From assembly GCF_016616885.1 (NCBI RefSeq), contig NZ_CP067102.1, positions 7,840,501 to 7,904,500 of the forward strand: a DNA stretch of 64,000 nucleotides. Direction: 5' to 3'. The notes beneath the pieces are model-generated. The model saw nothing but the letters and a program-made list of their open reading frames with translations. It was not told the origin of the DNA and did no database searches. Both the position numbers and the translations under genes were made by a program. Source of the DNA: Bradyrhizobium diazoefficiens (GTDB lineage Bacteria > Pseudomonadota > Alphaproteobacteria > Rhizobiales > Xanthobacteraceae). This document shows, piece by piece, positions 7,088 through 47,617 of the stretch; position 1 is the stretch's first letter, and every line of letters begins with the position of its first letter.

Positions 7088-7094
7088 CTAGGAA

Positions 7095-25177: not shown

Positions 25178-26359
25178 CTATTCCGCCGGGCACGCCGCGA
25201 CAGCGGCCTGCCTGCGGTCGAGCTGAAGGCTCCACAGCGCCAGCACGAGTCCGATTGCGGTGATGCCGGCCGCAACCAGCGGCAGCGCAGAGAGGCCGAG
25301 CCCACGATCGATGGTGACGCCGCCGGCCCAGGCACCGAGCGCATTGCCGAGATTGAACGCGGCAATGTTGAGGCTGGAGGCGAGCGTGCGGCCGCTGGGG
25401 CCGGCGGCCTCCAGCACGCGAAGCTGCAGCGGCGCGACGGTTGCAAAGGCCGCGATGCCGAGCAGCAGGATCAGCGCAATGGTGGGAATCTTGACCGACA
25501 GCACGGCGGCGAGACCAAGCAGCACGATGGCGAGCGCGGCGAGCGTGCCGGTCAGTGCGCGAGCAAGGCCACGGTCGGCGAGCTTGCCGCCGGCGACATT
25601 GCCGATCGCAAGCCCGAGACCGAACACCAGCAGGATCGGCGAGACGGCGGCTTCCGAAAAGCCGGTGAAACGGGTCAGGATCGGCTGGATATAGGTGAAG
25701 ACGACGAACAGGCCGGCGAAGCCGAACACGGTCATGGCGAGGCCGAGCGACACCTGCCCGCGCCCGAGCACGGCAATCTCCTCGGCGAGCGAGATCGGCT
25801 TGTCGCCGTTGCCAACATGGCCGGGCACGAGCGCCGCCACCACCGCAAAGGCGATCACGCCGATCACCGTCACCGCCCAGAATGCCGCGCGCCAGCCGAG
25901 CATCAGGCCGAACCAGGCACCGAAGGGTACGCCGAGCAGCGTCGCGACCGTGAGGCCGATGAACATCGTGGCGATGGCGGAAGCGCGCTTGTCCTCGGCG
26001 ACCAGGTTGGTCGCCACCACCGAACCGACACCGAAGAAGGTGCCATGGGCGAGCGAGGTCAGTACCCGCGCGGCCATCAGCAATTCGTAATTCGGCGCGA
26101 GCGCACAGGCTGCATTGCCGAGCGTAAAGATCGCCATCAGCGCCAACAGCACGGTCTTTCGCGGTAGCCGGCGGGTCGCGAGCGTCAGCACGGGCGCGCC
26201 GACGAACACGCCGAGCGCATAGCCGGAGATGAGCAGCCCCGCGACCGGCACGGAGACGTGCATGTCGGCGGCGACCTGGAGCAGCAGGCCCATGATGATG
26301 AATTCGGTGGTGCCGATGCCGAAGGCACCGGCGGTAAGCGCGAGGACGGCGGGAGGCAT
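25178..26359 (-). CDS. MFS transporter, DHA1 (AraJ/YdhP-like) family
   Basis: A 393-aa inner-membrane protein with twelve predicted helices. GTTEFIIMGLLLQVAADMHVSVPVAGLLISGYALGV-like N-terminal order is typical of AraJ/YdhP/PbuE drug-proton antiporters. It exports small molecules by proton exchange. It is divergent from the LysR gene, which probably controls it. The start at 26359 has GGAGG-like sequence upstream within the gap. An inverted repeat lies in the leader. The cargo is unknown. Confidence 0.88.
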   Translation of the reverse strand: MPPAVLALTAGAFGIGTTEFIIMGLLLQVAADMHVSVPVAGLLISGYALGVFVGAPVLTLATRRLPRKTVLLALMAIFTLGNAACALAPNYELLMAARVLTSLAHGTFFGVGSVVATNLVAEDKRASAIATMFIGLTVATLLGVPFGAWFGLMLGWRAAFWAVTVIGVIAFAVVAALVPGHVGNGDKPISLAEEIAVLGRGQVSLGLAMTVFGFAGLFVVFTYIQPILTRFTGFSEAAVSPILLVFGLGLAIGNVAGGKLADRGLARALTGTLAALAIVLLGLAAVLSVKIPTIALILLLGIAAFATVAPLQLRVLEAAGPSGRTLASSLNIAAFNLGNALGAWAGGVTIDRGLGLSALPLVAAGITAIGLVLALWSLQLDRRQAAVAACPAE

Positions 26360-26390
26360 GCGTGGCTCCAATGGATGAAACGAGCCACGC
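26360..26390. promoter_or_regulatory. Inverted repeat in the MFS leader
   Basis: GCGTGGCTC (26360-26368) and GAGCCACGC (26382-26390) are perfect 9-bp arms around a 13-bp spacer directly upstream of the MFS start, in the gap shared with the LysR gene. It could be an mRNA hairpin hiding the ribosome site or a regulator site. Confidence 0.45.
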
Positions 26391-26457
26391 AGATAGCCGC
26401 CCTCACGCAAAACCATTAGAATGTCCGCAATCCAATCATTTGTGACGTCAATTCAAC

Positions 26458-27411
26458 ATGGCTCGTTTCGACACCAACCGCTCTGCCGAGATGGAGGTTT
26501 TCGTCCGCGTCGTCGACCTCGGCGGCTTCACCCAGGCCGCGCAAAAGCTGCGCCTGACGCCGTCGGGCGTCAGCAAGCTGATCTCGCGGCTGGAGGCGCG
26601 GCTCGGCTCGCGGCTGATCAACCGCACCACGCGCAAGCTGACGCTGACGGAGGAAGGCCAGGCCTTCTACCAGCGCGCCGTGCGCATCCTCGGCGAGATG
26701 GAGGAAGCCGAACGTGAAGCGGCATCCGGCGCCACACCGCGCGGCCGGCTCACGGTCAACAGCAACATCCCCTTCGGCATGCTGCATGTGATGCCGCTGA
26801 TTCCGCGCTTTCTCGCAGAGCATCCCGACGTCACGCTCGACCTGATGCTGACCGACACGCTGATCGATCTGATGCAGGAGCGCGCCGATGTCGCCATCCG
26901 CGTCGGCCCCCTGCGCACCTCACGCCTCGTCGCGCGAAAGCTCGGCACCAGCCGCATGGCGGTGGTCGGTGCGCCGGATTATCTGGCCCGCGCGGGCATG
27001 CCGAAGACGCCGGCGGACCTCGCCGACCACCGTGGCATCGGCTGGACCTTTCCGCGCTCGATCCGCGGCTGGCCGTTCAAGCGCGGCGACCGCACCGAGG
27101 AAGCGGTGCCGCCGCCGGCCGCACGCGTCAGCGACGGCGAAGCCGCCCGCCGCCTTGCGCTCGGCGGCGTCGGCCTCGCCCGCCTCGCCCTCTTCCACAT
27201 CGGCCCCGACATCGAAGCCGGCCGCCTCGTGCCCGTGCTGCAAGGCTATAATCCCGGCGACCGCGAAGACATCCATGCCGTCTATGTCGGCCACGCGGCG
27301 CCGCTGCCTGCACGCGTGCGTGCGTTCATCGATTTCTTGGCGGAGCACGTGCGGGTGAGCGACCCAACGCTGAAGCGTGCGCAGGATGGGACGTGGAAAA
27401 TGGCGGGATGA
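26458..27411 (+). CDS. LysR family transcriptional regulator
   Basis: A 317-aa LTTR. The winged HTH at about 10-70 has GGFTQAAQKLRLTPSGVSKLISRLEARLG, and the effector-binding domain covers about 95-300. Gene order and spacing (98 bp, divergent) point to control of the MFS/aldo-keto reductase unit. LTTRs usually repress themselves and activate the divergent gene when bound to a small effector. The effector is unknown. Confidence 0.9.
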   Translation: MARFDTNRSAEMEVFVRVVDLGGFTQAAQKLRLTPSGVSKLISRLEARLGSRLINRTTRKLTLTEEGQAFYQRAVRILGEMEEAEREAASGATPRGRLTVNSNIPFGMLHVMPLIPRFLAEHPDVTLDLMLTDTLIDLMQERADVAIRVGPLRTSRLVARKLGTSRMAVVGAPDYLARAGMPKTPADLADHRGIGWTFPRSIRGWPFKRGDRTEEAVPPPAARVSDGEAARRLALGGVGLARLALFHIGPDIEAGRLVPVLQGYNPGDREDIHAVYVGHAAPLPARVRAFIDFLAEHVRVSDPTLKRAQDGTWKMAG

Positions 27412-27755
27412 GGCAATGGGGAGGGAGCGGGCTTCGAATCTTCCCCGCCTAGCCAAGACGACGATGGAACTTTCGACGCGCCACGATTTGACGCGAAAGT
27501 TTCACGCAAATCTCGAGAATGCATGGCCTCCGCAATTTTCGTCACGCTGTCGATAAATTCATCCGGCAATATCGACGCGTACACACGTCACGATTTTCAA
27601 CCGCGGAAATCGCACGAGCATCCATTCAAAACTTCGTTCAGAACCAACAGCTGCTTGACAGACATTTCCAACCATTGCAGTTTTAGGTTGAATAACCGTC
27701 GAATGATTTTGCTTTGCTCGTTTGATCTTCCAGGCACCGAACGGGGAGCATTCAT
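27412..27755. promoter_or_regulatory. 344-bp AT-richer region upstream of the AIDA-repeat gene
   Basis: No gene seen. AACTTTCG (27468-27475) and CGAAAGTT (27494-27501) form a hairpin. A perfect -35 like TTGACA is at 27655-27660 with only weak -10 candidates 17-19 bp on. GGGGAG precedes the ATG at 27756. It probably contains the promoter of the large surface protein gene. Confidence 0.35.
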
Positions 27756-30575
27756 ATGACGGTTATTCCTCCCGCCAGTGGCGTTACCATCCACAATGGC
27801 GACACGATGGATGTCAGTTACGGCGCCTCCGTCGATAGCACGACGATCGAAACCGGCGGCTTGCAGACGGTCGGTGGATCTTTCTCAACAAGCACGGCCA
27901 CCCACACGACCATCTATGGCGGAGAACAGGACGTCATTCTGGATGGCGTCGCCAGCTATACGACGATCTTCGCAGGCGGCGTGCAGCGTGTAACGGGCGA
28001 ATTTGTCCATGAAGGTCCAACCCCCGGCGCGGTTGATCACACCACGATCAATAGCGGCGGCGAGCAGGATATCGACACGGGCACCGCGACGACGACGACC
28101 GTCAATTCCGGCGGCGTCCAGAACGTGACGAATGGTGGCAGCGCCAGCGGCACCATCGTCAATTCCGGCGGTGTTCTCAAAGTCTCGGGTGAAACTGTAG
28201 AAACGGCACCGGTGTATCCGCCGCCGGTGATCCAAAGCGTAGCGACCGCTGCAATCATCAACTACCAGGGCCAATTCAACGTCACCGGCGGCGGGACTTC
28301 GGTGAATGCCATCGTCAACGGCGGCGTCATGACTGTCTCGGGATCGATACCGGATCCGTTCGCCAACTTTCCGGGACAGCCGGCTGTCGACGTCAGCATG
28401 GCGAGCGGCACCACCGTTGAAAGTTTTGGACTCCTAACGGTATCGAATGGAGCGTCGGTGTCCGGAACAATGCTCCAAAACTTCGGCAGGCTGAATTTGG
28501 ATGCAGGTGGCACAGCGACCGGAACGACAGTCGATTACGGAACGATGCAATTGTCCGCCGGCGCGACGGCGATCAATACGACCGTCAATCAATTTGGCGT
28601 TTTCATCGTGCTGGGTAACGCCAATTTCTCGGGGACGGTCTTCAACGCCGGCAGCACCTTCCAGATCGGCGACGGTACGATTGAAAGCGGATTTACTGTT
28701 GCGAAGAGCGTGACGCTGGCCGTTCTGGACGGCGGTGTCCTCAACAACAGTATTGTCTCCGGAGGCGCAACGCTCATCGCCGAAGCCGGCGCGACGCTAT
28801 CCGGTACGACCTTCCAGAGCGGCGCAACGTTCGTTGCCGACTATGGCTATACGGAAAGCGGCTTCACCGTGTCGGACGGCATATTGTTCAAGGTGTTCGG
28901 CACAGCCACGAACACGACGATATCAGCCGGCGGCAAGCAAATCGTAGGTCTCGCCGACTTAGGCGGTTCCGCCAGCAACACCGTCATCAACGGAGGCGAA
29001 CAGGATGTCGGGCTTGCGTCCACCGCGAGCTACACCACGATCAACATGGGCGGCATTCAGCATGTCGCCGGCATATATATGCATGATATGCCAGGTCCAG
29101 GACGGGCGGATCACACCACCGTCAACAATGGCGGCGAGCAGGATGTCGATACTGGCATCGCGATGTCAACCACCGTCAATGCCGGCGGCGTCCAGAATCT
29201 CACCAATGGCGGCTTTGCCAGCGATACCATCGTCAAGTCGGGCGGTGTCATCAATGCGTCGGGAGAGACGATCTATTATCCTCCCGGAGGCCCGTACGGC
29301 ACCGTCATCAGAAGCGAAGTCGATTCAGCTGCTGTCGGCAGCGGCGGCCAATTGCACCTGACCGGGGCGGGGATTGCCAAGAACGCCACCATCAATGGTG
29401 GTGTGATGACGGTTTCGGGGTCAATTCCGGACCCCATCACGAGCGACCCAAATGCTCCGGCGGTCGACGCCAGCGCGGCGAGCGGAACAATCCTCAATTC
29501 TGGAAGCCTCTCGGTCTCAGACGGCGGCATCGTCACCTCTACGACTCTGAACGGCGGCACGCTCGACGTGCTCAATCAGGGCACCGCGAACGCTTCGACA
29601 ATTCATCTTGGCGCCACGGAACTCGTCGAGGCGGGTGGCTTTGCCGGCGCGACCACGATCGCCGGCGGCACGCTCGATCTCAAGGCGGGCGCGATGTCCG
29701 ACGACGCGATCATCTTCTCCGGCCAAGGCACACTCAAGATCGAGCAGAAGCTGGTTTCGGGCCCATCGACCTTCGCAAGCCAGATAAAGGGGATTGCACT
29801 CGGCGACCAGATCGATCTGTCGGGGCTGTCCTATACCAGCGGCGCAACGGTGACTGTATCTGGCTCGAAGCTGACGGTGAGCAACGGTACGGCCAGCGAG
29901 ACCTTCACATTGGCGGATACCTCGGTCACGCGTTTCGGCATCACGAAGGACGGCTCCGGCGGCGTTCTGCTGACGGCCGCGGCCCTGCCCTCCATTGCAG
30001 GAGCCGTATCGGGACAAACGACCAGCAACGAAGCTGCGATCAATCCATTCGCGACCGTAGCGATCACAGATCCAAACGCGGGAGCAACCGATAGCCTCAT
30101 CATCACGCTCGCGGGCGCGGCCGGCATTCTGTCCGGGACAGGACTGATCTCGCTTGGAAACGGAACCTACGAACTTGCAGCGGCCAGCGCTGACAAGCTG
30201 ACCGCCGAGCTGCACGCCCTTACCTTTGTGGCCTCGCCGCACGGAGACGGCAGCGCAACGACCACGTTCACGCTGAGCGACACAAGCAGCGTAGGCCTGA
30301 CCGTCAGCGACGCTCGTACGTCCGTCATCGACACGCATCAAGCCGGTCCCACGATGATCGATGGCCCGGCATCCGGCTATGCGACCGTTCAGGGGACGGC
30401 GGGCAACGACATCATCCACGCCTATGGCATGTTCAATATCATCCACGGCAATGGCGGGACCGACACGATCTACGCCGGACTATACGGCACGGTTGATGTG
30501 TCGAGTGGAGACAGCATCGTCCATTTGGAGGGGTTCGGCAATCGCGCAACCGCGGCGACGGCAATATCACGGTGA
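27756..30575 (+). CDS. AIDA-repeat surface/secreted protein, N-terminal part of a frameshifted gene
   Basis: A 939-aa product. Residues about 20-640 are AIDA-type repeats of about 20 residues (GGEQDV, GGVQNV, NGGVMTVSG), expected to fold as a beta-helix. A beta-sandwich segment resembling cadherin/VCBS-like domains follows (about 745-865). The last 70 residues (GTAGNDIIHAYGMFNIIHGNGGTDTIYAG) begin a calcium-binding beta-roll. There is no signal peptide, which fits type I secretion. The frame stops abruptly at 30573 in an Ala-rich stretch that does not fit the repeat, while the beta-roll continues in the -1 frame. A 190-residue duplication lies inside. The likely role is adhesion or biofilm; this is inference. 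Confidence 0.75.
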   Translation: MTVIPPASGVTIHNGDTMDVSYGASVDSTTIETGGLQTVGGSFSTSTATHTTIYGGEQDVILDGVASYTTIFAGGVQRVTGEFVHEGPTPGAVDHTTINSGGEQDIDTGTATTTTVNSGGVQNVTNGGSASGTIVNSGGVLKVSGETVETAPVYPPPVIQSVATAAIINYQGQFNVTGGGTSVNAIVNGGVMTVSGSIPDPFANFPGQPAVDVSMASGTTVESFGLLTVSNGASVSGTMLQNFGRLNLDAGGTATGTTVDYGTMQLSAGATAINTTVNQFGVFIVLGNANFSGTVFNAGSTFQIGDGTIESGFTVAKSVTLAVLDGGVLNNSIVSGGATLIAEAGATLSGTTFQSGATFVADYGYTESGFTVSDGILFKVFGTATNTTISAGGKQIVGLADLGGSASNTVINGGEQDVGLASTASYTTINMGGIQHVAGIYMHDMPGPGRADHTTVNNGGEQDVDTGIAMSTTVNAGGVQNLTNGGFASDTIVKSGGVINASGETIYYPPGGPYGTVIRSEVDSAAVGSGGQLHLTGAGIAKNATINGGVMTVSGSIPDPITSDPNAPAVDASAASGTILNSGSLSVSDGGIVTSTTLNGGTLDVLNQGTANASTIHLGATELVEAGGFAGATTIAGGTLDLKAGAMSDDAIIFSGQGTLKIEQKLVSGPSTFASQIKGIALGDQIDLSGLSYTSGATVTVSGSKLTVSNGTASETFTLADTSVTRFGITKDGSGGVLLTAAALPSIAGAVSGQTTSNEAAINPFATVAITDPNAGATDSLIITLAGAAGILSGTGLISLGNGTYELAAASADKLTAELHALTFVASPHGDGSATTTFTLSDTSSVGLTVSDARTSVIDTHQAGPTMIDGPASGYATVQGTAGNDIIHAYGMFNIIHGNGGTDTIYAGLYGTVDVSSGDSIVHLEGFGNRATAATAISR
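27900..28475 (+). repeat. Internal duplication, copy 1
   Basis: Encodes residues about 49-240 of the AIDA-repeat protein. It aligns without large gaps to copy 2, about 359 residues further on. The identical stretch GGVMTVSGSIPDP is at 189-201. The DNA differs mostly at third positions, so the duplication is old. Confidence 0.7.
28977..29546 (+). repeat. Internal duplication, copy 2
   Basis: Encodes residues about 408-597 of the same protein, matching copy 1: GGEQDV, SYTTI, the DHTT.N.GGEQD.DTG block, TNGG.AS, and GGVMTVSGSIPDP at 549-561. Confidence 0.7.
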
Positions 30576-31387
30576 CGGGATCGACAGGCGCCACCATGAT
30601 CACGCTCGGCAATGGCAACGACACCATTGACGCCAGCGGATACGGGAACATCATCATGTTGGGCAACGGCAAGAATATTGTCCATCCGGGTGACGGCGCG
30701 AGCACAACGACGGCCGGCAACGGCAACGACCAGGTGACGCTCTCCGGATTTGGCAACACCGTCATACTTGGAAATGGCAACGATCTCGTCACCGGCGGAA
30801 GCGGCGCCAACAGTGTCACGCTCGGCGACGGCGACAACACCGTGAACCTCGGCGGCATGGTCAACCAGATCACCGTCGGTTCGGGAACAAACACAATCAT
30901 TGCCGGCAACGGAGCGGATAACGTCGTTGCTGGCGCGGGTCACGATACAATCACACTAGGCGGAGTCGCCAATCACGTGGTGCTCAACGGCTCCGCGGCA
31001 ACTGTGACAAACCAGATTGGCCTGGACGTCATTACGGCCAATGGCGGATCAGATCAGTTTAACTTTGTCGGGTTCGGCAATCAGGCGATCATCAATGGCG
31101 CGGCCCATGTCAACATCAACGATCACAGCACGGGCCTGACCGTCTCGATCAACTCCAGCAACCAAATCGATACGATCTTCGGATTCGGCAATGACCCGCT
31201 CGGCGTCATCGATCTTGCAAACGGCGTCGGCAATTACCACTCCGTCGCCGACATCATGAGCGCGCTCAAGGGCGATGGACACGGCGGGACCCTGCTTGCG
31301 CTGGGCAGCGCTCCCAACGCGGGATCTGTCGATTTCGTCGACACCGCGATCAGCCAATTGCACGCATCGAACTTTATGATCGTGTAA
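30572..31387 (+). CDS. Beta-roll repeat protein, probable C-terminal part of the frameshifted AIDA gene
   Basis: A 271-aa reading frame with a GTG start overlapping the previous stop (GTGA). Residues 10-150 are glycine/asparagine/aspartate-rich repeats (LGNGNDTIDASGYGN, LSGFGNTVILGNGND) of the hemolysin-type beta-roll kind. The frame is actually open from 30497, and its codons before the GTG read NRGDGNITVTGSTG, which continues the repeat of the upstream frame. The C terminus ends in hydrophobic FMIV after an Asn, like type I secretion signals. I read it as the same protein after a one-base loss near 30550; a separate coupled gene is the alternative. Confidence 0.7.
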   Translation: MTGSTGATMITLGNGNDTIDASGYGNIIMLGNGKNIVHPGDGASTTTAGNGNDQVTLSGFGNTVILGNGNDLVTGGSGANSVTLGDGDNTVNLGGMVNQITVGSGTNTIIAGNGADNVVAGAGHDTITLGGVANHVVLNGSAATVTNQIGLDVITANGGSDQFNFVGFGNQAIINGAAHVNINDHSTGLTVSINSSNQIDTIFGFGNDPLGVIDLANGVGNYHSVADIMSALKGDGHGGTLLALGSAPNAGSVDFVDTAISQLHASNFMIV

Positions 31388-31553
31388 AGACAAAGCCGCG
31401 AAAACAACCCCATGCACAGTAGCCGGCCCATTGTCGGCATTGCGCTTTTTCAAATTTTTGATTTTACGAGATCAGCTTGACCCGTCGGGCAAAACAGGGG
31501 CATGATGCCATCATGGCAGAAGGCCTCCGCGAGCGGAGACGAATGCAGCTCGA

Positions 31554-31579
31554 GCGCCGGCATCGGAGAACGCCGGCGC
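31554..31579. other. GC-rich inverted repeat in the gap before the cyclase gene end
   Basis: GCGCCGGC (31554-31561) and GCCGGCGC (31572-31579) can pair. It lies in the 252-bp gap between the convergent beta-roll and cyclase genes and may terminate one or both; no T tract is present. Confidence 0.4.
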
Positions 31580-31639
31580 GCATCCCAAGATCCTGTCGGC
31601 ACGCCGCCCTAAACGAGGCGCGGATCCGTCCATCGACCT

Positions 31640-32416
31640 TTAGCCCTCAACGATGGCAACCGCCCGTGTCCAGCCCGCGGATGCCCGCTCGATCTTCACC
31701 GGGAAGCACGACACCATGAAACCGGTCGAGGGCAGAAGCTCGAGATTGTGCAGCTTCTCGATGTGGCAATAGCCGATGTGGCGTCCAGCCTTGTGACCTT
31801 CCCAGATCAGGCTGGCATCCCTGGTCTCGGCATATTTCTTCGCGGTGTAGACGAAGGGCGCGTTCCAGCTCCAGCCATCGATCCCGGTCAGCCGCACGCC
31901 GCGCTCGAGCAGATACATCGTCGCCTCGTAGCCCATGCCGCAGCCCGAGGTGACGTAGTCCTGTTGGCCATATTTGGCGCCGGCGCTGGTATTGACCACG
32001 ACGATCTCCAGCGGCGACAATTTATGCCCGATGCGCTTGAGCTCGGCTTCGACATCCTTGGCGGTCGCGACATAGCCGTCCGGCAGATGACGGAAGTCGA
32101 GCTTCACGCCGGGCTGAAAGCACCATTCCAGCGGCACTTCGTCGATGGTCCACGCGCGCTCGCCGCGGTTCATCGTGGGATGGAAATGCCAGGGGGCGTC
32201 AAGATGGGTGCCGTTGTGGGTGGAAAGATGGACCATCTCCACCGCCCAGCCCTGGCCGTCAGGCAGATCCTCCGCCTTCAGCCCATCGAAGAACTGGAGC
32301 ATGCGCGGCAAGCCTTGTTGATGATCGACGTACTGAATGGTCGGATGATTGCCCGGCGGATCGGCCGGCACGTCGTTTTGCAGCGGTACGGAGATATCGA
32401 TCAGTCTGCGCGCCAT
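31640..32416 (-). CDS. Cyclase family protein (metal-dependent hydrolase)
   Basis: A 258-aa member of the family that includes kynurenine formamidase and isatin hydrolase. The metal-binding motif HxGTHxDxPxH appears as STHNGTHLDAPWHFHP at about 66-81. Such enzymes hydrolyse amide bonds in cyclic or formylated aromatic compounds. It follows the FAH-family gene on the same strand after 37 bp and is probably in one operon with it. The divergent ABC transporter suggests that the pair degrades the imported compound. The exact substrate is open. Confidence 0.88.
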   Translation of the reverse strand: MARRLIDISVPLQNDVPADPPGNHPTIQYVDHQQGLPRMLQFFDGLKAEDLPDGQGWAVEMVHLSTHNGTHLDAPWHFHPTMNRGERAWTIDEVPLEWCFQPGVKLDFRHLPDGYVATAKDVEAELKRIGHKLSPLEIVVVNTSAGAKYGQQDYVTSGCGMGYEATMYLLERGVRLTGIDGWSWNAPFVYTAKKYAETRDASLIWEGHKAGRHIGYCHIEKLHNLELLPSTGFMVSCFPVKIERASAGWTRAVAIVEG

Positions 32417-32453
32417 GGTATTTCCTCGTTGCCTGTTCTTGTCTGTTGAGAGC

Positions 32454-33452
32454 TCAAGCGTCCTGGCGCTCTACCCTGTTCTTCAAGACGCCGATTTTTT
32501 CGACTTCGAGCTCGACCGTATCGCCATGTTCGAGAAACCAGCCAAGCTCGAGTCCGCAGCCATTGCCCACCGTGCCCGAACCGATGAATTCGCCCGGCAT
32601 CAGAGTCTCGTCCTGCGTGACATGGGCGATGATCTCCTCGAACGAGAACAGCATCCCATCCGTGGCCCCAGTTGAGCGGGTCTCGCCGTTCACACGTGCT
32701 TCCATCTTCAGCTTATAGGGATCGCCGATCTCATCCGGCGTCACGATCCACGGTCCCATCACATTGCCGCCGTCGAAGCTCTTGCCCTTGGCGGGGCCGA
32801 GCCGTCCTTCCATCTCGATGCGCTGGGCGTCGCGCGCCGAGAAATCGTTGAAGATGGTGTAGCCGAAGATGTGATCCTTCGCCTTCGCCGCAGAGATATT
32901 CGCGCCCCTGTTCTTGGTGATGATGCCGAATTCGAGCTCGTAGTCCATCACCCTGCTGTAGCGCGGCCACCTTACGGTGGTGTTGGTGCCGCGGACGCTG
33001 AAACGGTTGGTGATGTAGAAGATCGGCTGCTTGCGATAGACCTCGGGCAACTCGCCGAGCGGCTCGGCGTCGATTCGCGCCAGTTCCGCCATGTCACCCC
33101 CGGCGCGCGCCGCAAGCTTCCGCTGGCCGCGCGGCGCCTGGAGGATGTGCAGCGGAAATGACATGCCGTCGCGCATCTGCCGCGGCTCCGGCACCGGCGC
33201 GAGAAGATCTACCGCACCTGTCGCCGACGATAGCGCCGGGTCCTTGCCGTGCTCCTCGAACAGCGCCGCCGCCTGTTCCAGCGCGCGTGGCCCCGCGTCG
33301 ATCAGCGACAGCATCGAGCTGAAGGCCGGACTGCCCTGTCCATCACGGCCGGCGGCCGCGGCAAGGTCGAATATCTGGCTGTCATTGGAATGCACGATGC
33401 CGATCTTGTCCTGCCCGGCCGACTTGAATGTTGCGAGTTTCACCTTGAACAC
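32454..33452 (-). CDS. Fumarylacetoacetate hydrolase family protein
   Basis: A 332-aa FAH-fold enzyme that cleaves or decarboxylates diketo acids at the end of aromatic ring catabolism. The metal site is expected in MDYELEFGIITKNRG (about 168-182) and the FNDFSARD loop; the C-terminal core GTVGNGCGLELGWFLEHGD is typical. The N-terminal 110 residues are the usual FAA_hydrolase_N domain. It is the first gene of the minus-strand operon. Its start is only 59 bp from the divergent transporter operon, which implies shared control. Confidence 0.88.
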   Translation of the reverse strand: MFKVKLATFKSAGQDKIGIVHSNDSQIFDLAAAAGRDGQGSPAFSSMLSLIDAGPRALEQAAALFEEHGKDPALSSATGAVDLLAPVPEPRQMRDGMSFPLHILQAPRGQRKLAARAGGDMAELARIDAEPLGELPEVYRKQPIFYITNRFSVRGTNTTVRWPRYSRVMDYELEFGIITKNRGANISAAKAKDHIFGYTIFNDFSARDAQRIEMEGRLGPAKGKSFDGGNVMGPWIVTPDEIGDPYKLKMEARVNGETRSTGATDGMLFSFEEIIAHVTQDETLMPGEFIGSGTVGNGCGLELGWFLEHGDTVELEVEKIGVLKNRVERQDA

Positions 33453-33472
33453 CCCCTTGCTCTTGATGAAAC

Positions 33473-33499
33473 TATATGATCAAATAAAATATCGATATT
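33473..33499. promoter_or_regulatory. AT-rich divergent promoter with palindromes
   Basis: AATATCGATATT (33488-33499) is a perfect 12-bp palindrome and TGATCA (33477-33482) another. Both lie in the 59-bp gap between the FAH and binding-protein genes. FCD-type GntR regulators use AT-rich palindromes, and one is encoded in the operon. Confidence 0.5.
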
Positions 33500-33511
33500 C
33501 AAGACGAAAAA

Positions 33512-34480
33512 ATGCGAACCGGGAGGATTGGTTTGAAGAGACAGTTGGCAAGGCTGGCGATCACACTCGGAATCTCGCTTGAGATGTCCTGCGCGCTGGC
33601 CGGTGCGGCGGCGGCGCAGGCGAAGATTCAGATCGGTTGCACGGCCACGTCCGACTGCGCATCCGCGATGGTCGCGGTCGATGAGGGCATCTTCCGAAAA
33701 CACGGGCTAGACGCCGAGATGACACCGATCGCCATCAACTCGAATATCCCGGCCGCGATCCTGTCGAATTCGATCCAGATTGGCGGGCCGACCTCGACCG
33801 TCTTCCTCCAGGCCGTTGACGGCGGCCTCGATCTCGTCGCCGTCGTCGGCGCGTCGGTAATGAACGCAACATCTAACAACGCCATCACAGCTTTCGTCCG
33901 CAACGGCATCTCCATCAAGGAGCCGAAGGATTTTGTCGGCAAGAAAGTCGGCGCACCGGGGCTGAACGCGTTTCTGCACGTGCTGTTCGTGAAGTGGCTG
34001 GTAGAGAAAGGCGTCGACCCCAAGAGCGTCAATTTCGTCGAGGTGACCTTTCCGACCATGGCCGACATCATCAAATCGGGCGGCGTCGACGCCGTGCTCA
34101 CGGCCGAGCCGTTCGTCACCCGCATGACCAATGCGGGCCTCGGCTCCGTCGGCGCGCGCTACGCGGTCGAGCTCGCCCGCACCGACCCGATCATCTTCTA
34201 CGCCGCCTCGCGCGAATGGGCGGAGAAGAACGCCGCGACCGTGAAGAAGTTTCGCGATGCGATCGCGGAAGCGGCCGTGATCGTCAACAGCGACCGCGAA
34301 AAGGCTTCCGCTTCGATCGCAAAGTTCACCAAACAGCCGCTCGATCTCGTCAAGGCGACGCCTCCGAATCAGTCCGAGCCGAGCCTGAAGCCGGAAAACC
34401 TCGCCTGGTGGATCGAAGTGATGTCATCGCAAAAGATGCTGCAATCGACGCTTGATAAGAACAAGTTGGTGCTGAACTGA
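33512..34480 (+). CDS. ABC transporter substrate-binding protein, SsuA/NMT1 type
   Basis: A 322-aa periplasmic binding protein of the group that carries sulfonates, nitrate, taurine, pyrimidine precursors or aromatic acids. A signal peptide with cleavage after the AAAAQA region (about residue 36) is clear. The mature protein has the type 2 periplasmic-binding fold (GCTATSDCASAMVAVDEGIFRKHGL). The ATG at 33512 has a weak ribosome site; a TTG at 33533 has GGGAGGA five bases upstream and may be the true start. It heads an operon with GntR, ATPase and two permeases. Confidence 0.87.
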   Translation: MRTGRIGLKRQLARLAITLGISLEMSCALAGAAAAQAKIQIGCTATSDCASAMVAVDEGIFRKHGLDAEMTPIAINSNIPAAILSNSIQIGGPTSTVFLQAVDGGLDLVAVVGASVMNATSNNAITAFVRNGISIKEPKDFVGKKVGAPGLNAFLHVLFVKWLVEKGVDPKSVNFVEVTFPTMADIIKSGGVDAVLTAEPFVTRMTNAGLGSVGARYAVELARTDPIIFYAASREWAEKNAATVKKFRDAIAEAAVIVNSDREKASASIAKFTKQPLDLVKATPPNQSEPSLKPENLAWWIEVMSSQKMLQSTLDKNKLVLN

Positions 34481-34491
34481 GGACCCTTACC

Positions 34492-35196
34492 ATGCCGGCT
34501 TCCGAACGCACTGCCGAGCGTCCGAACGGCGAGGCCGGCACCTTGAGCGAGCGCGCTGCCAGCCTCGTCGAGCAGGACATCCTCGCCGGACGTCTGGCGC
34601 CGGGGTCGCGGCTTGGCATCGTCGATCTCGTGCAGCGCTACGAGATCGGCGCCACGCCGCTGCGGGAGGGATTGTCGCGCCTGATGTCGCGCGGATTGAT
34701 CGTCGGCATCGGCCAGCGCGGCTTTCGGGTTGCCGAGGTCAGCCGCGAGGACCTGGCGGACATCACTTGCATGCGTACCGCCATCGAGAAAGAGGCGGTC
34801 CGGCTCGCCATCATCCACGGCGACGATGCCTGGGAGGCCGGTATCGTGAGCGCGCTGCATCAGATGCGCCGGCACATCGAGCGTACCGGCAACGAATTCC
34901 GCGAGGGCGCCGCCGATTTCGACCGCCTGCACAAGGGCTTCCACACTGCCCTGCTCGCGGCCTGCGGCTCGGGGCGGATGCTCGGCGCGCATTCGGACCT
35001 CTATGACCAGGCCTACCGTTACCGCCGCGTGATGATGCGCGCGATCGACAGCGGCGCAGAATTCATCCGCAGCCATCAAATGCTCGCCGACCGCGCGCTG
35101 GCGCGGGACGTTCCGGGCGCACAAAGAATGCTGCAGGAACACCTGCACTCAACCATCAATTTCGTTTATCCGCCCGATAGCGGGAGTGATCGATGA
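34492..35196 (+). CDS. GntR family regulator, FCD (FadR C-terminal) type
   Basis: A 234-aa regulator: winged HTH (about 18-80, with IVDLVQRYEIGATPLREGLSRL) and an all-helical FCD effector domain (about 85-220). FCD regulators respond to organic acids. It sits inside the transporter operon, 11 bp after the binding protein and overlapping the ATPase start by four bases. It is therefore made together with the transporter and probably controls it and the divergent hydrolase genes. Confidence 0.9.
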   Translation: MPASERTAERPNGEAGTLSERAASLVEQDILAGRLAPGSRLGIVDLVQRYEIGATPLREGLSRLMSRGLIVGIGQRGFRVAEVSREDLADITCMRTAIEKEAVRLAIIHGDDAWEAGIVSALHQMRRHIERTGNEFREGAADFDRLHKGFHTALLAACGSGRMLGAHSDLYDQAYRYRRVMMRAIDSGAEFIRSHQMLADRALARDVPGAQRMLQEHLHSTINFVYPPDSGSDR

Positions 35197-35999
35197 CCGT
35201 CCTCGCAAGACTGGATGAAACAAGGGCGGCACAGCGGCCGAAACCGTTGATTACCTTCAGCGGCGCGACGCTTCGGCTCGGCGGCAAGACCATCATCGAG
35301 AATCTCGATCTCGAGGTGCGGCCCGGCGAATTCCTCTGCATCGTCGGCGCTTCGGGTTGTGGCAAGACCACCGCACTGCGGCTCGCGGCGGGCCTCTATC
35401 GTCCGAGCAGCGGCGCCGTCACCTTCGAGGGCCAGCCGATGCTCGAACCGCGACGCGAGGCGGCGATCGTATTCCAGGACTATGGCAAAGCGCTGCTGCC
35501 ATGGCGAACCGCAGCTGGTAACATCTCGCTTGCGCTGGAGGCCTGCGCAGTTCCCACACGCGAGCGACCTGGCCGCATCGCAGACTTGCTGCGCAAGGTT
35601 GGCCTCCCCGCCCATGCCGGGAAATATCCGGCGGAAATGTCCGGCGGCATGCAGCAGCGCTTGCAGATCGCGCGCTGTCTCGCTCAGGAGCCAACCACGC
35701 TGTTGATGGACGAGCCGTTCGGCGCGCTGGATGCGATGACGCGACAAGGTCTCCAGGATGAGGTGCTGTCGTTGACAGCGGCGAGCAGCACGACCGTCAT
35801 GTTCGTGACCCACGATCTCGACGAAGCGATCTATCTCGGCGACCGCGTCATCGGTCTCTTGCCGCATCCAGGACGGATCGGGATCGAGCTGGATGTCAAC
35901 CTGCCGCGGCCGCGCGACCAGCTCGCCACCCGCGAACACCCGGAATTCCTGCGGCTGCGCCGGCAACTATTCGACTTCGTCAAGGCGACCGAACATTGA
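35193..35999 (+). CDS. ABC transporter ATPase, SsuB/TauB type
   Basis: A 268-aa nucleotide-binding subunit. Walker A GASGCGKTT is at 52-60, the signature MSGGMQQ at 149-155 and Walker B LLMDEP at 170-175. FVTHDLDEAIYLGDRV is the family's H-loop region. It starts inside the GntR stop (ATGA) and ends overlapping the TTG start of the first permease. It powers import with the two permeases that follow. Confidence 0.92.
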   Translation: MTVLARLDETRAAQRPKPLITFSGATLRLGGKTIIENLDLEVRPGEFLCIVGASGCGKTTALRLAAGLYRPSSGAVTFEGQPMLEPRREAAIVFQDYGKALLPWRTAAGNISLALEACAVPTRERPGRIADLLRKVGLPAHAGKYPAEMSGGMQQRLQIARCLAQEPTTLLMDEPFGALDAMTRQGLQDEVLSLTAASSTTVMFVTHDLDEAIYLGDRVIGLLPHPGRIGIELDVNLPRPRDQLATREHPEFLRLRRQLFDFVKATEH

Positions 36000-36760
36000 A
36001 GCTCGAGCGCACCAGACCACTCTTGCTGCCGATCGCGGCGCTGCTCGTCTTCGAGCTCTGGATCCGCCTCGCGCATCTGCAGAGCGACAGCCTGGCACCT
36101 CCGAGCGCGGCCTTCGTCGCTCTGGTCGCAGCACTCGCCGACTTCACGATCCCGATCGCCACGCGTGACACGTTGCTCGCGGTATTCGCGGGGCTCGCGA
36201 TCGGTAGCGTCATCGGGCTTGCGCTCGGAATAGCCTTCGGTCTTTCGACTATCCTCGATCGGCTGATGGAAGTGACCATCGAGGCAATCCGTCCGATCCC
36301 GTCGATCGCGCTGCTGCCGATCGCGCTGATCGCGCTCGGCTTTGGATATCGCATGGAGATCGTGATTGTCGCATTTGCCTGCGTCTGGCCAATGCTGATC
36401 CTGAGCCGCGCTGCGGTCCGCGGCATCGAGCCGCGATTGATGGAAGTTTCGCGAGCGCTGCGCCTGACGCCGGCGCAGCGGATCATCAAGATCATCATTC
36501 CAGCGGCTTTGCCGCGGATTTTCGTCGCATTCCGCCTCTCCGCCGGCATCGCGCTGATCGTCGCAGTGACGGTCGAGATCGCGATCAATCCGCTCGGCCT
36601 CGGCGCCGGCATCATGCAGGCGCAGCAGGCGCTGCGCGCCGACCTGATGCTCGCTTATCTTGTCTGGATTGGCGCCATTGGCTACGGGTTCAACTTCGCC
36701 CTGGTCGTCGTCGAGCGTCGCCTGTTCGGCCGTGCCGCAACCGCCGGGGCAGTCTCATGA
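35996..36760 (+). CDS. ABC transporter permease, SsuC/TauC type (1)
   Basis: A 254-aa inner-membrane permease of the BPD_transp_1 family with six predicted helices. The EAA-loop that docks the ATPase is about 134-150 (EVSRALRLTPAQRIIKIIIPAALPRI). The start is TTG, sharing two bases with the ATPase stop. Its partner permease overlaps its end by four bases. Having two different permeases suggests a heterodimeric channel. Confidence 0.88.
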   Translation: MKLERTRPLLLPIAALLVFELWIRLAHLQSDSLAPPSAAFVALVAALADFTIPIATRDTLLAVFAGLAIGSVIGLALGIAFGLSTILDRLMEVTIEAIRPIPSIALLPIALIALGFGYRMEIVIVAFACVWPMLILSRAAVRGIEPRLMEVSRALRLTPAQRIIKIIIPAALPRIFVAFRLSAGIALIVAVTVEIAINPLGLGAGIMQAQQALRADLMLAYLVWIGAIGYGFNFALVVVERRLFGRAATAGAVS

Positions 36761-37521
36761 GCGCCACCGCGATAATCTGGCGCATTGCGAGTTTTGCGGT
36801 CGCGGCCGGCTTTGTCGGGCTCTGGCAACTCGTTGCCAATTTCAAGCTGATCTCGCCAGTGTTCTTGCCCGGGCCCGACCGCGCCTGGGCCGCACTGATG
36901 CGTGGCCTTGCGACCGGCGATCTCACGAGCAAGCTCGTCGGCACGCTGGAGCACATGGCCTATGGCTGGCTCGCCGCCTCGATCGCGGGCATCGCGCTCG
37001 GCGCACTGATCGGATCGTCTCGCTTGATGCGCGCCTACATCGCCCCATCGCTGGAATTCCTGCGTCCACTGCCGGTGTCCGCGATCATCCCGGTCGCGAT
37101 CGCGCTGCTCGGTCTGACGCAGGGCATGGCCCTGTTCGTTATCGCCTTCGGTGCGATCTGGCCGATCATGCTTGCGACCATTCACGGTTTTGCCGCAGTC
37201 GAGCCGCGCCTCTACGAGGTCGCCCGCTCGTTGCAGATGTCGCGCCCGGCCGTTGTCTTCAAGATTGCGTTGCCGTCGGCCCTGCCCGACATCCTCGCTG
37301 GCATGCGGCTCAGCCTGACGGTCGCGCTGATTCTCTCGGTGGTCTGCGAGGTGCTTGCCGGGCTCGACGGCCTCGGCCATTGGGTGTTGTTGTCGGCGCG
37401 CGCCTTCCGCTCCGCCGATCTGTTCGCCGGCGTGATCCTGCTCGGAGCGACGGGCTACGTCACGTCGGTTGCAATGTCCTTGGCCGAGCGCAGGCTATTG
37501 GCATGGCAGTCGCCGCGATAG
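36757..37521 (+). CDS. ABC transporter permease, SsuC/TauC type (2)
   Basis: A 254-aa permease with six predicted helices and the docking loop EVARSLQMSRPAVVFKIALPSALPDI (about 156-180). It is coupled by ATGA overlap to the first permease and is the last gene of the operon. Binding protein, ATPase and both permeases are complete, so the system should work. Confidence 0.88.
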   Translation: MSATAIIWRIASFAVAAGFVGLWQLVANFKLISPVFLPGPDRAWAALMRGLATGDLTSKLVGTLEHMAYGWLAASIAGIALGALIGSSRLMRAYIAPSLEFLRPLPVSAIIPVAIALLGLTQGMALFVIAFGAIWPIMLATIHGFAAVEPRLYEVARSLQMSRPAVVFKIALPSALPDILAGMRLSLTVALILSVVCEVLAGLDGLGHWVLLSARAFRSADLFAGVILLGATGYVTSVAMSLAERRLLAWQSPR

Positions 37522-37831
37522 CGGTCCAAATCCACGACCCGCGTGCGTCAAACCTCGGCGAAGGGGCCGGTCAGCGAGATAGGGGGAAGCCAGCGACGCG
37601 CGGACGATAACGTCCAGCTCCATGCGAACGAGCAGCGGAAGCATGGGCAGCTGTCGACCTTGAGCTAGCGCGCTAGCATGTTAATCTTGACCTCGGATGT
37701 GTGAAGCGGAAAGCGCGCGCTAAGTGCAAAAGAGTCTACGCCGAGGCCACGCCATGGATCAAAGTAGGCGCGCCTGAGAGACAACGCGAGGGAAGGCAGC
37801 GTCAGCGCCTCAATGCGATAGGGTGATGAGG
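37522..37831. other. 310-bp gap with a GCTAGC palindrome
   Basis: No gene seen. A perfect 14-bp palindrome GCTAGCGCGCTAGC lies at 37664-37677 and is followed by TTAATCTTGACCT, a possible -35 region for the SMI1/KNR4 gene. AGGG eight bases before the ATG at 37832 is the likely ribosome site. Confidence 0.3.
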
Positions 37832-38887
37832 ATGACGGCGAAAAGGCCCTTTGACGGGTTCGATTTCGAAGGCTTCTGGGACGACCATCCGTATTCCCTG
37901 GAGAACTATGTCGAGCCTCCGCCGAGCGACGAGCTGATCGCCTCCATTGAGCAGGAATTGGGTGGGTATCGGCTGCCGGCGGCCTATGTCGACCTCGCGC
38001 GGCGCCACAATGGCGGACTGGTCAAGCGCAACTGCCACCCGATGAAGGAGCGTACCGGCTGGGCGGAGGACCACGTGGCTATCGAGGGGCTCTACGCCAT
38101 CGGCCGCACGGCCGAATATTCACTTGCCGGGCAACTGGGCGCCAAGTTCATGATCGAAAAATGGGGCTACCCGCCGATTGGCGTCGGCATCGCCGACACG
38201 CCGGCCGGGGGCCACGAACTGATTATGCTGGACTACCGGACCTGCGGAAAGCGGGGTGAGCCGCAGGTCGTGTACGTCGACCAGGAGGCTGACTACAGCA
38301 TCGTCGCCGTTGCGCCGGACTTCGAGACCTTCATTCGAGGCTTGGTCGAGGAGTCCGAGTACGACACTGCCGAGGAGGATCGGGCTGCGGCAATTGCAAC
38401 CGTCGAGCGGGGAACGTTTTCACCAATCGTGGTGCGGGCCCTGGCCGCCGTCGGCGACCGTCTGCCGAACGGCGAGCGAATATTGCGAGCCTTGGCCCGG
38501 CAGGTCGTGGACGAGAAGGGCTTCTTCGCCTTGCACGACGACGAACGCTCGCACCTGATGTATGGACTGATGTTCTGGCTCTATTCGAGCCTTTGTACCG
38601 CCAGATCCTTCGAAGCTTTCGTGGACCGTCCCGAGACCGGCGCCTCCTACGACGACTCGATTTGTTACGAGCTGATGATCGCTTTCGACCTTGTCGCCGA
38701 CCCTTACGACTTCAACACGCGCGGGTACGCCGAGGGCTTTGTGAGGGACTGGTGGGACGCGTGCGTCGCCGGCGGCGACATCGTCGAGATGGCGGAAGGC
38801 TACCGTCTCACTCCCAACGCCGAAGCGACCCTGCTCGGGCGCTTGGCGACGATTTCTGGCCCCGAAGTCAATAAGCCAGCGCGATGA
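37832..38887 (+). CDS. SMI1/KNR4 family protein
   Basis: A 351-aa cytoplasmic protein. The N-terminal half (about 35-165) carries the SMI1/KNR4 (SUKH) fold: LIASIEQELGGYRLPAAYVDLARRHNGG, then GIADTPAGGHELIMLDYR and EPQVVYVDQEADYSIVAVAPDFETFIRGL. SUKH proteins often act as immunity proteins to contact-dependent or secreted nuclease toxins. The C-terminal half (about 175-350) is helical and unfamiliar to me. No toxin or secretion gene is adjacent. The start at 37832 is chosen for its AGGG site; GTG/ATG alternatives lie at 37823 and 37826. Confidence 0.8.
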   Translation: MTAKRPFDGFDFEGFWDDHPYSLENYVEPPPSDELIASIEQELGGYRLPAAYVDLARRHNGGLVKRNCHPMKERTGWAEDHVAIEGLYAIGRTAEYSLAGQLGAKFMIEKWGYPPIGVGIADTPAGGHELIMLDYRTCGKRGEPQVVYVDQEADYSIVAVAPDFETFIRGLVEESEYDTAEEDRAAAIATVERGTFSPIVVRALAAVGDRLPNGERILRALARQVVDEKGFFALHDDERSHLMYGLMFWLYSSLCTARSFEAFVDRPETGASYDDSICYELMIAFDLVADPYDFNTRGYAEGFVRDWWDACVAGGDIVEMAEGYRLTPNAEATLLGRLATISGPEVNKPAR

Positions 38888-39054
38888 TTTGAGATTGATG
38901 CGATCCGGCCTCAGAGCTTCCTTTGCTCGCGCCGTGGAAGAACACCAAGAATGCGTGCTTGACCGCTCGCGCGGCTTCCGCAGCATCTTCGACCTCGAAC
39001 TCGTCCGCTTCGATCTCCCGTTCGGACCGGACGATTCATGGATCGAACAGAACC

Positions 39055-42000
39055 CTACTCGGCAGCCAGTGCCGGTCGCAATTCCGGCTCTTCCGCAGCA
39101 TCCCCGTGGATCTCATCCGCAGTCGGCTTGATCCGAAACCATGCGGCATAAAGCGCAGGAAGGAACAGCAGGATCAGGACCGTGCCGACTGCGGTGCCGC
39201 CGATCAGCGTGTAGGCCATCGATCCCCAGAACACGGAGTGCGTGAGGGGAATGAAGGCCAGCACGGCAGCAAGTGCGGTCAGGATCACGGGCCTGGTACG
39301 CTGCACCGTGGCTTCGATGACGGCGTGATAGTCATCAAGGCCGGCGGCAAGGTTCTCCTTGATCTGTTCGGTCAGGATCAGCGTATTGCGCATCAGGATG
39401 CCCGCCAGTCCTATCAGCCCCAGAATGGCGTTGAACCCGAAGGGCTGGTGAAAGGCCAGCAACATCGGCACGACACCGACGAGGCCAAGCGGTCCCGTCA
39501 GCACGACCATGGCCATCGTCGAGAACGATCGCACCTGCAACATAATGACGATCAGCATGGCGGCAATCATGGCGGGAAAGATCGTCGCCAACGCATCGTT
39601 GGCCTTGGTTGCCTCCTCGATCGATCCGCCCAACTCGATGCGATAGCCGGCGGGCAGTGACGCGATCAGCGGCTGAAGTGCCGTCTTGATCTCCTTGGAG
39701 ACCTCTGGCGGTTGGGTCGCCTCGTTGATGTCCGACCTGATGGTGACGACGGGGGTGCGATCGCGACGCTTCAGGATCGGCTCTTCAAGCTGGACTTCCG
39801 AATGGCCGACCTGGTCGAGCGGAACCGGGCGACCGTCCCTGCTCATCAGTGAGAAGTCCGCCAGACGCGTCGGATCCAGCCGCTCGCCACCGGCGCTGCG
39901 TGCCACGATGGGGACATTACGAATGTCCTCGCGAACCTGCGTCACGGTGATGCCGGTGAGCAGGAATTGGAGTTGCCGGCCGACCTCCGCTGGCGAAAGA
40001 CCGATGAGGTTCAGTCGATCCTGATCCGGGATGAAGCGGAGCACGGGCGTGCGATTGCCCCAATCGCGGTTCGCTTGGCGCACGTCGGGAACGCCACGCA
40101 TGATACCGAGGGCTTTTTCGGAGATGGCGTACAATTGCGCCGGATCAGGCCCCATGACCCGAAACTCGACCGGGAATGGCGTGTAGGGTCCGAACACGAG
40201 CTGGGTGACGCGCACATTGGCCTCAGGTGCAAGGCCCTGTGACACCGCCTGTCGGAGCCGGTGCTTCAGATCTTCGCGCGCCTCCGCGTCCGGCGTCAGC
40301 ACGACGATCTTGGCGAAGGCCGGATCAGGCAGTTCCGGCGCCATCGCGAAGAAGAAGCGAGGCGCGCCCTGACCGATATAGCTCGTGACGATCTTGGCTT
40401 CGGGCTGATCGTGCAGCCACCGCTCGAGCTTCTCGGCTGCGGCGGTGGTCGTCTCGATGCTGGTGCCTTCCGGCAGACGAACCTCCACCAGCACTTCGGG
40501 ACGGTCGGAGGTCGGGAAGAACTGCTGTTTGACGCCGCCCATGCCGACGACGGACAGGGCGAAGGCGACGGCGACGATGCCACAGGTTACGAACTTGTGG
40601 CGGACGGCGAAGGTAATGAGCGCGCGCAGACGCCGATAATTCGGCGTGCCGTAAATCGCGTGGTGACCACCTTCGATCGGCTTGATCGCGGGCAGCATCT
40701 TGACGCCAAGATAGGGCGTGAAGACCACCGCGACGATCCAGGAGACGATGAGAGCGAACCCCACGACCCAGAAGATGTTGCCGGCGTATTCGCCGGCCGT
40801 CGAACGCGCGAAGCCCACCGGCAGGAAGCCGGCGATCGTCACGAGTGTTCCCGACAGCATCGGCGCCGCCGTGTGGCTCCACGCATAGGCCGCCGCCAAC
40901 ATACGGTCCATGCCCTCTTCCATTTTCACCACCATCACCTCGATGGCGATGATGGCGTCGTCCACGAGAAGACCAAGCGCCAGGATGAGGGCGCCGAGTG
41001 TGATGCGGTCGAAGAACCTGCCGGTCTCCAGCATGATGAGGAACACGACGGCAAGGGTCAGAGGAACGGCGGCCGCGACGACGATTCCGACGCGCCAGCC
41101 GAGGCTGAGCAGGCTCACCAGCAGCACCACGCCGAGCGCCATCGCGAACTTCATCATGAATTCATCGACGGCCGAGGTGATGTTGACGGCCTGGTCACTG
41201 ACCTTGGCCAGAGACATCCCGAGCGGCAGCGTCCGGGAGATCGCTGCGGACCTCTCCTCCAGCGCCTTGCCGAGCGCGAGGCCGTTCCAGCCCTCTTGCA
41301 TGATCGCCGCGAGCATGATGGACGGCTCGCCCTGGTGCCGGATGAGATAGGTGGGAGGATCCTCGTAACCGCGGCGGACTACTGCGATGTCGGAGAGTTT
41401 CAACGTCCGCCCCGCAGCGACGATCGGGGAATCGGCGATCGCCTGCACGCTGTCATAGGCGCCGTCGACCCGGATGAAGACCTGCGGCCCCCTGGTGTCG
41501 ATCGAGCCCGCCGGTGTGACGGTGTTCTGCCGCTGCAAGGCCGCGACAATATCCTGTGCCGACACGCCGAGCGTTGCCAGCTTGGGATAGGAAAACTCGA
41601 CGAATATCTGCTCGGGACGTTCCCCGAGGATGTTGATCTTCTTGACGCCGGGCACGTGCAGAAGGTCCTGGCGAATAGTCTCGGCCTGCCTGGCGAGCTC
41701 CCGCATTGGCATGCCCTTGGCCTTGAGGGCGTAAAGGGCGAAGCTCACGTCCGAATATTCGTCGTTGACGAAGGGGCCGAGCACACCAGACGGCAGCTTG
41801 CGCGCTTCGTCCCCGAGCTTCTTGCGGGCCTGGTAGAACTCCTCCTGCACGACGGATGGCGGCGTGCTGTCCTTCAACGTAACGGTCATGTAGGCATAAC
41901 CCGGCCGCGTGGTCGTCTCCACCCGGTCGTACCAGGTCAGCTCCTGAATCCGCTTCTCCAGGGGTTCGGCGACCTGGTCCTGCATCTCGCGCGCCGTCGC

Positions 42001-43274: not shown

Positions 43275-43292
43275 GTCCAACTCCCGCCTTCA

Positions 43293-43346
43293 TTTAGATT
43301 GCCGTCAAACTCTATAATCCAGAATAGAGTTCGATCGCAATCTAAA
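43293..43346. promoter_or_regulatory. Long dyad operator 1 of the TetR/RND system
   Basis: Two nested perfect inverted repeats share one centre: TTTAGATTGC (43293-43302) with GCAATCTAAA (43337-43346), and AACTCTAT (43308-43315) with ATAGAGTT (43324-43331). Spacers are 5, 8 and 5 bp. This 54-bp symmetric site lies 19 bp upstream of the adaptor start and resembles sites bound by two TetR dimers. Confidence 0.8.
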
Positions 43347-43428
43347 AGTGCGGGTTCACGGAACCGTGACCATGGAGAGAGCTGACTATCTCGGCGTCGG
43401 AGCTTTCGCCACGGGGACGACGCTTTGA

Positions 43429-43477
43429 TAGATTGCGTTCAGTCTCTATTTCTCATATAGAAGTCAAACGAAATCTA
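43429..43477. promoter_or_regulatory. Long dyad operator 2 of the TetR/RND system
   Basis: A degenerate second copy of the same design: TAGATTGC (43429-43436), GTCTCTAT (43442-43449), ATAGAAGT (43457-43464), GAAATCTA (43470-43477), with spacers 5, 7 and 5 bp. It lies 17 bp before the TetR start, so the regulator probably controls itself. Confidence 0.7.
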
Positions 43478-43493
43478 AATAGGAGAGCCCACG

Positions 43494-44072: not shown

Positions 44073-44103
44073 AAGATCGCCCCTCGAACCACAGAGAGAT
44101 CGA

Positions 44104-44955: not shown

Positions 44956-45046
44956 CAGCAATGAGGCGTCGACATCGCGGCAAGTAGCGCCATTGACGCG
45001 CAAGGTTGCACCAGGGAACCATTGCCCGCCATCGTCGTTTCGCCCT

Positions 45047-47353: not shown

Positions 47354-47361
47354 CCGAGATG

Positions 47362-47515: not shown

Positions 47516-47617
47516 AGTGACCCTGCAACCCTTCGACAACCCGTTCGGCACGAGGTTGTCACCCATGTCTTAGGTACGACCTGTTACCTATGTCTCCGGG
47601 CTGGACAAAGTGGCGGG

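What the first reader, a model, noticed from the sequence alone, without database searches (positions are those of the whole stretch)
30497..30575. A -1 frame break splits a 1.2-kaa AIDA/beta-roll protein in the middle of its repeat
The upstream frame reads beta-roll up to EGFGN and then turns into an Ala-rich tail and a stop. The -1 frame is open from 30497 and resumes the repeat as GDGNITVTGSTG. Adding one base between ACC and GCGGCGACG near 30550 restores a continuous repeat. This could be a real mutation, phase variation, a programmed -1 shift, or a sequencing error. The GTGA overlap at 30572 would also allow coupled translation of two proteins.
Basis: partly seen in the sequence, partly recalled or inferred. 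Interest (0 to 1): 0.7.

Follow-up and report, generated by a model that had tools for sequence, protein, structure and literature searches.

The report
Frameshifted AIDA-repeat/RTX gene in Bradyrhizobium
A gene for a long, probably secreted protein lacks one base in this soil bacterium's sequence and so falls into two pieces, while most relatives that have the gene carry it whole; it is an ordinary broken gene or a sequencing slip, not a special coding trick.

Summary
An AIDA-repeat/beta-roll gene reads as a 939-aa frame (27756-30575), then a -1 frame open from 30497 to 31387. The pieces match residues 1-930 and 932-1208 of one intact relative at 95% and 97%. Of 23 other Bradyrhizobium genomes with the gene, 21 carry it as one open frame. 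At the junction 21 of 23 could be aligned; all 21 have one base more. So the break is private among the genomes examined: a recent single-base loss or an assembly error, undecided here. Nearby genes are mostly frame-clean. A programmed shift fails on slippery site, RNA structure and conservation. Phase variation lacks a simple repeat. The GTGA overlap is an inherited Val codon followed by A in 14 of 15 intact relatives. The intact product is best read as an AIDA-stalk RTX protein, probably exported by type I secretion; no autotransporter barrel was found. The 5' piece loses the presumed export end. Several relatives have the gene broken elsewhere. Ordinary; low interest.

The parts
27756..30575 (+). 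5' piece: 939 aa, AIDA / strand-loop-strand repeats (PF16168, TIGR04415), then a further region and the first RTX-like turns (below cut-off alone); ends a few codons after the frame break
30547..30554 (+). zone of the frame break; the window has one base fewer than all 21 alignable relatives (exact placement ambiguous)
30572..30575 (+). GTGA overlap: in-frame Val codon of the intact gene, and the stop of the 5' piece
30497..31387 (+). 3' piece, -1 frame: RTX beta-roll (PF00353) and conserved C-terminus presumed to be the type I secretion signal; 271 aa if read from GTG 30572
26458..27411 (+). upstream neighbour, LysR-type regulator
25178..26416 (-). upstream neighbour, MFS transporter

Best explanation
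A single base was recently lost in this lineage near 30550 and inactivated a gene that is whole in most relatives that have it. The intact product is a surface or secreted protein: AIDA-type repeats form a stalk and an RTX beta-roll follows (both shown by sequence family), and the conserved C-terminus serves as the type I secretion signal (inferred). After the break the 939-aa piece keeps the stalk but lacks that C-terminus, so it should stay in the cell (inferred). The 3' piece keeps the signal but has no good ribosome-binding site (inferred from sequence).
For: 21 of 23 relatives with the gene have it as one open frame; all 21 of 23 that align at the junction have one base more. The assembly is mostly frame-clean where looked at: rpoC, carB and the window's 1037-aa RND pump are open; of 114 coding-like genes of the compared G215 stretches, all on the upstream side, 107 are intact here, 3 were flagged frame-broken and 4 partial, and one of the 3 is a wrong-frame extension. 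No homopolymer of 3 or more at the site. The gene looks dispensable: 24 of 265 genomes match at E <= 1e-20, and it is broken elsewhere in G077 (two breaks, though its rpoC, carB and RND homologues are open) and in database proteins such as P0023 and P0025.
Against: No reads or second assembly of this strain were available, so an assembly error is not excluded. Changes private to this genome show no relaxed constraint after the break (C part 5 nonsynonymous to 9 synonymous, N part 30 to 39, Fisher p 0.77): the mutation must be young, or is not real, or the C part is still used. With 14 changes in the C part this test is weak.
Confidence: 0.58

Rival explanations
1. Sequencing or assembly error: the living strain carries the gene whole, as most relatives do, and one base was dropped in the consensus.
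For: Only one base differs; no sign of relaxed selection on either side. Assemblies with frame errors exist in this set: rpoC of G101 lies in two frames. Up to two of the 114 compared genes may show true frame differences.
Against: Frame breaks are rare in the part of this assembly that was compared; no homopolymer of 3 or more at the site.
Confidence: 0.35
2. Two working proteins: the gene was split into a 939-aa AIDA protein and a 271-aa RTX protein translated by termination-reinitiation at GTGA.
For: GTGA overlap; the C-terminal module has database relatives of similar size over nearly its whole length, e.g. P0125 (367 aa, 44%, 100% covered) and P0127 (332 aa, 42%, 97%) (not checked to be complete genes); constraint not relaxed.
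Against: GTG followed by A is present in frame in 14 of 15 intact relatives, so it is inherited coding sequence; any TGA stop preceded by A, G or T gives an NTG codon in the -1 frame; weak Shine-Dalgarno match (3 of 6 at -16); the 5' piece lacks the presumed export end; no relative with the region is split here.
Confidence: 0.04
3. Programmed -1 frameshift or phase-variable switch that makes both a short and a full-length protein.
For: The downstream frame is -1, the direction of most known bacterial programmed shifts (recalled, from no call).
Against: No XXXYYYZ heptamer in the overlap; RNA fold z -0.80; no simple repeat at the site; absent from 21 of 21 alignable relatives; the other breaks of the family lie elsewhere.
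Confidence: 0.03

Closest known systems
Bradyrhizobium orthologs P0003-P0022 without P0011; some are named AIDA repeat-containing or strand-loop-strand repeat protein by their source
   Same: AIDA repeats, near full length, 72-95% identity to the 5' piece
   Different: One open frame of about 1200 aa; the window's copy is split
AIDA-I / Ag43 / TibA self-associating autotransporters
   Same: AIDA / strand-loop-strand repeats; sequence matches to solved TibA, AidA-I family and Ag43 chains
   Different: No autotransporter barrel hit; far below the AIDA-I and Ag43 model cut-offs; RTX C-terminus instead; no Aah/TibC heptosyltransferase match in the genome (where the E. coli control rang only below the cut-off)
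RTX proteins exported by type I secretion (e.g. NodO; RapD of Rhizobium, abstract start)
   Same: PF00353 repeats above cut-off in the C part; matches to RTX beta-roll chains; C-terminal location; type I ABC genes in the genome
   Different: AIDA stalk at the N-terminus; no catalytic or pore-forming domain among the hits; secretion not tested
Single-nucleotide loss of a type I secretion/biofilm function in cultured Desulfovibrio vulgaris (PMC5646257, passages)
   Same: One base change disables export of surface-type proteins in a cultured strain
   Different: There a missense change in the transporter; here a frame break in the presumed cargo

Membership tests
[quoted passage not shown]
   PF00353 30.9 bits against cut-off 23 in the 3' piece; the 5' piece alone 17.7, below cut-off; Ca binding itself not tested
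RTX / type I secreted proteins | uncleaved C-terminal secretion signal and T1SS-dependent export | not testable with these tools
   Conserved C-terminus and type I ABC genes in the genome (three PrtD matches over the cut-off; HlyB and HlyD over theirs, beside two other AIDA-repeat genes) are compatible; export needs an experiment
AIDA-I type autotransporters | AIDA / strand-loop-strand repeats | tested here: met
   PF16168 87.4 bits against 27; TIGR04415 194.9 against 30
AIDA-I type autotransporters | C-terminal outer-membrane beta-barrel (PF03797) | tested here: not met
   No such hit in either piece at E <= 1, nor among the listed domains of P0003-P0022
AIDA-I type autotransporters | full-length model score (NF033176, NF033177) | tested here: not met
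   5' piece 117.7 and 82.2 bits, intact relative P0003 111 and 85.9; cut-off 1200 each
Programmed -1 frameshift genes | slippery heptamer XXXYYYZ in the overlap | tested here: not met
   none found, in any frame
Programmed -1 frameshift genes | stimulatory downstream RNA structure | tested here: not met
   30540-30640: -32.5 kcal/mol, z -0.80, 43 of 200 shuffles fold as well; pseudoknots not tested
Programmed -1 frameshift genes | conservation of the shift in relatives | tested here: not met
   0 of 21 alignable relatives, of 23
Phase-variable genes (slipped-strand type) | simple sequence repeat at the switch | tested here: not met
   no homopolymer of 3 or more in 30536-30575; no tandem array in 27700-31400; four G at 30530 lie upstream of the gap zone

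The most novel reading that the evidence does not exclude
A gene fission caught at its start: the break has just separated a beta-roll protein with its own secretion end from its AIDA stalk, and both are still translated through the inherited GTGA overlap.
Probability: 0.04. Interest if true: 0.4.

Novelty: new member of a known kind. Interest (0 to 1): 0.14.

Why it matters
Mainly as annotation: the two frames should be treated as one disrupted gene, not as two proteins or a recoding case. If the mutation is real, it adds to signs that Bradyrhizobium strains lose this large, probably secreted protein repeatedly, which may bear on attachment or biofilm differences between strains and on changes in culture.

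Tried and rejected
Programmed -1 shift, slipped-strand phase variation and a coupled two-gene design were tested and set aside.

The test for relaxed selection aligned 15 of the 21 open-frame orthologs; the private changes of this genome were counted against four of them (G119, G059, G215, G216). It gave no signal either way and has little power.

The first base-rate script counted wrong-frame ORFs and was replaced by one with a codon-position filter. That filter drops fast-evolving genes, including this gene itself. G215 to own: 114 genes, 107 intact, 3 frame-broken, 4 partial. Own to G215: 118 genes, 107 intact, 6 frame-broken, 5 partial. Of the 3, one is a wrong-frame N-terminal extension, one a frame-changed C-terminus, one a possible true frame difference. 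Of the 6, the second piece shows no excess of third-position changes in 4; 2 (own 7853331 and 7856006) remain unclear. All 114 and 117 of the 118 lie upstream of the end of this gene, so almost nothing is known about the downstream side.

A paper search for the genome length found nothing, so strain and sequencing method stay unknown. Structure prediction never ran, as the machine was busy each time.

Full report
Observation. The frame from ATG 27756 runs 939 codons to TGA 30573-30575. The -1 frame opens after a TGA at 30494-30496 and continues to TAA 31385-31387. An intact relative of 1208 aa (P0003) matches the window in two pieces: residues 1-930 at 95.4%, ending at 30551, and 932-1208 at 96.8%, starting at 30554, in the -1 frame.

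What the gene is. The 5' piece carries AIDA / strand-loop-strand repeats (PF16168 87.4 bits; TIGR04415 194.9 bits) and matches solved chains of TibA, an AidA-I family adhesin and Ag43. The 3' piece carries RTX repeats (PF00353 30.9 bits, cut-off 23). A profile of it with 14 hits that I chose from the 120 listed (alignment A1) matches RTX beta-roll chains such as those of CyaA and secreted protease C, and its C-terminus is conserved in that alignment. No autotransporter barrel was found in either piece. I therefore read the intact product as an AIDA-stalk protein exported by a type I system; the export is inference. It is helped by three PrtD matches above the family cut-off in this genome (all 14 control genomes rang, none above the cut-off). 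Further, two other AIDA-repeat genes of this genome (TIGR04415 142 and 139 bits) lie directly upstream of an HlyB-type ABC gene (TIGR01846 1050.8 bits, cut-off 725.55; below the PrtD cut-off) and an HlyD gene (TIGR01843 371.8, cut-off 208.65) (L152). No type I gene was identified next to the gene in the window; not every gene of the window was searched. The RTX review PMC3034196 (passages) describes the C-terminal signal and one-step export.

Relatives. Of 265 genomes of the genus, 24, this one included, match the 3' piece at E <= 1e-20. Of the 23 others, 21 read the gene as one open frame; three of these (G079, G280, G264) lack about 110-120 residues in the middle. G077 has the gene in three frames (two breaks). 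G101 keeps only a C-terminal remnant from about residue 1026 with a frame change. At the junction 21 of 23 relatives could be aligned (G077 among them); all 21 have one base more than the window, the gap being placed at 30547, 30551 or 30552. The two not aligned are G185, which one search shows as one frame, and G101, which lacks the region. Among the 26 database proteins P0003-P0028 (of 776 hits, 120 listed), 19 are near full length, 2 lack an internal stretch, and 5 lack an end or run out of frame (P0011, P0023, P0025, P0027, P0028) at other places. Whether contig ends explain some of these 5 was not checked.

Recoding, phase variation and coupling. There is no XXXYYYZ heptamer in the overlap. 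RNA of 30540-30640 folds no better than shuffles (z -0.80). There is no homopolymer of 3 or more in 30536-30575; a run of four G lies at 30530, upstream of the gap zone. There is no tandem array in the gene. The GTGA is GTG followed by A in 14 of 15 intact relatives, and GTC followed by A in the other; in all 15 it is an in-frame valine. A TGA stop preceded by A, G or T always makes an NTG codon in the -1 frame, so the overlap needs no special explanation. The ribosome-binding match before GTG 30572 is weak (3 of 6 at -16; 4 of 6 at -12 before ATG 27756).

Mutation or error. Changes private to this genome are 30 nonsynonymous to 39 synonymous before the break and 5 to 9 after it (Fisher p 0.77); five relatives treated alike gave p from 0.10 to 0.85. 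No decay is seen, so the break is young, or not real, or the C part is still used; the counts are small. In this assembly rpoC (1441-codon frame), carB (1173) and the RND pump (1062) are open. Of 114 coding-like genes of the G215 stretches with a counterpart here, 107 are covered to at least 90%, 3 were flagged frame-broken and 4 partial; one of the 3 is a wrong-frame extension. All 114 lie upstream of the end of this gene, and the filter leaves out this gene itself. The compared part of the assembly is thus not full of frame errors, which favours a real mutation, but no reads were seen. I put mutation at 0.58 and error at 0.35.

Consequence. If the break is real, the 939-aa product keeps the stalk and loses the presumed export end, and the 3' piece has a poor start; loss of function is the expected outcome. 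A comparable loss in culture is on record: one base change in a type I ABC transporter gene removed biofilm formation in Desulfovibrio vulgaris (PMC5646257, abstract start and passages). Paper searches for Bradyrhizobium with type I secretion and AIDA (6 papers), with RTX, type I secretion and frameshift (5 papers), with the strand-loop-strand repeat name (none), and with biofilm, adhesin, type I secretion system and calcium-binding (13 papers, 8 listed) listed no title about this gene; apart from passages of PMC3034196 and PMC5646257 only listings and abstract starts were seen.

Verdict. Among the genomes examined it is a private one-base frame break in a probably secreted, repeatedly broken gene: ordinary, low interest.

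Noticed in passing
window 31390-47615: About 16 kb between the broken gene and a tRNA-Ser (47618-47707) is missing in four relatives (G119, G215, G216, G064), where DNA matching from 47.6 kb onward follows the gene within about 0.1-2 kb. It looks like a tRNA-linked insertion in this lineage; no integrase was sought.
   Followed up: partly
L152 4239-13076 (own genome, about 5.72-5.73 Mb): Two further AIDA-repeat genes (459 and 1057 aa) directly upstream of an HlyB-type ABC gene and an HlyD gene, both above their family cut-offs: a likely T1SS-AIDA cluster.
   Followed up: partly
window 27912-28411 and 28978-29488: The AIDA region seems to hold an internal duplication: blocks of about 300-550 bp match relatives crosswise at about 66-74% identity.
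   Followed up: no
window about 29980-30335: G079, G280 and G264 lack this stretch in frame, so the gene exists with and without a middle part of about 110-120 residues.
   Followed up: no
L067 (G077) 5001-8625, minus strand: The ortholog in G077 is in three frames although its rpoC, carB and RND homologues are open: a separate breakage, or errors confined to this gene.
   Followed up: partly
G101: rpoC of this draft genome lies in two frames (1116 and 650 codons), which suggests assembly errors there.
   Followed up: no
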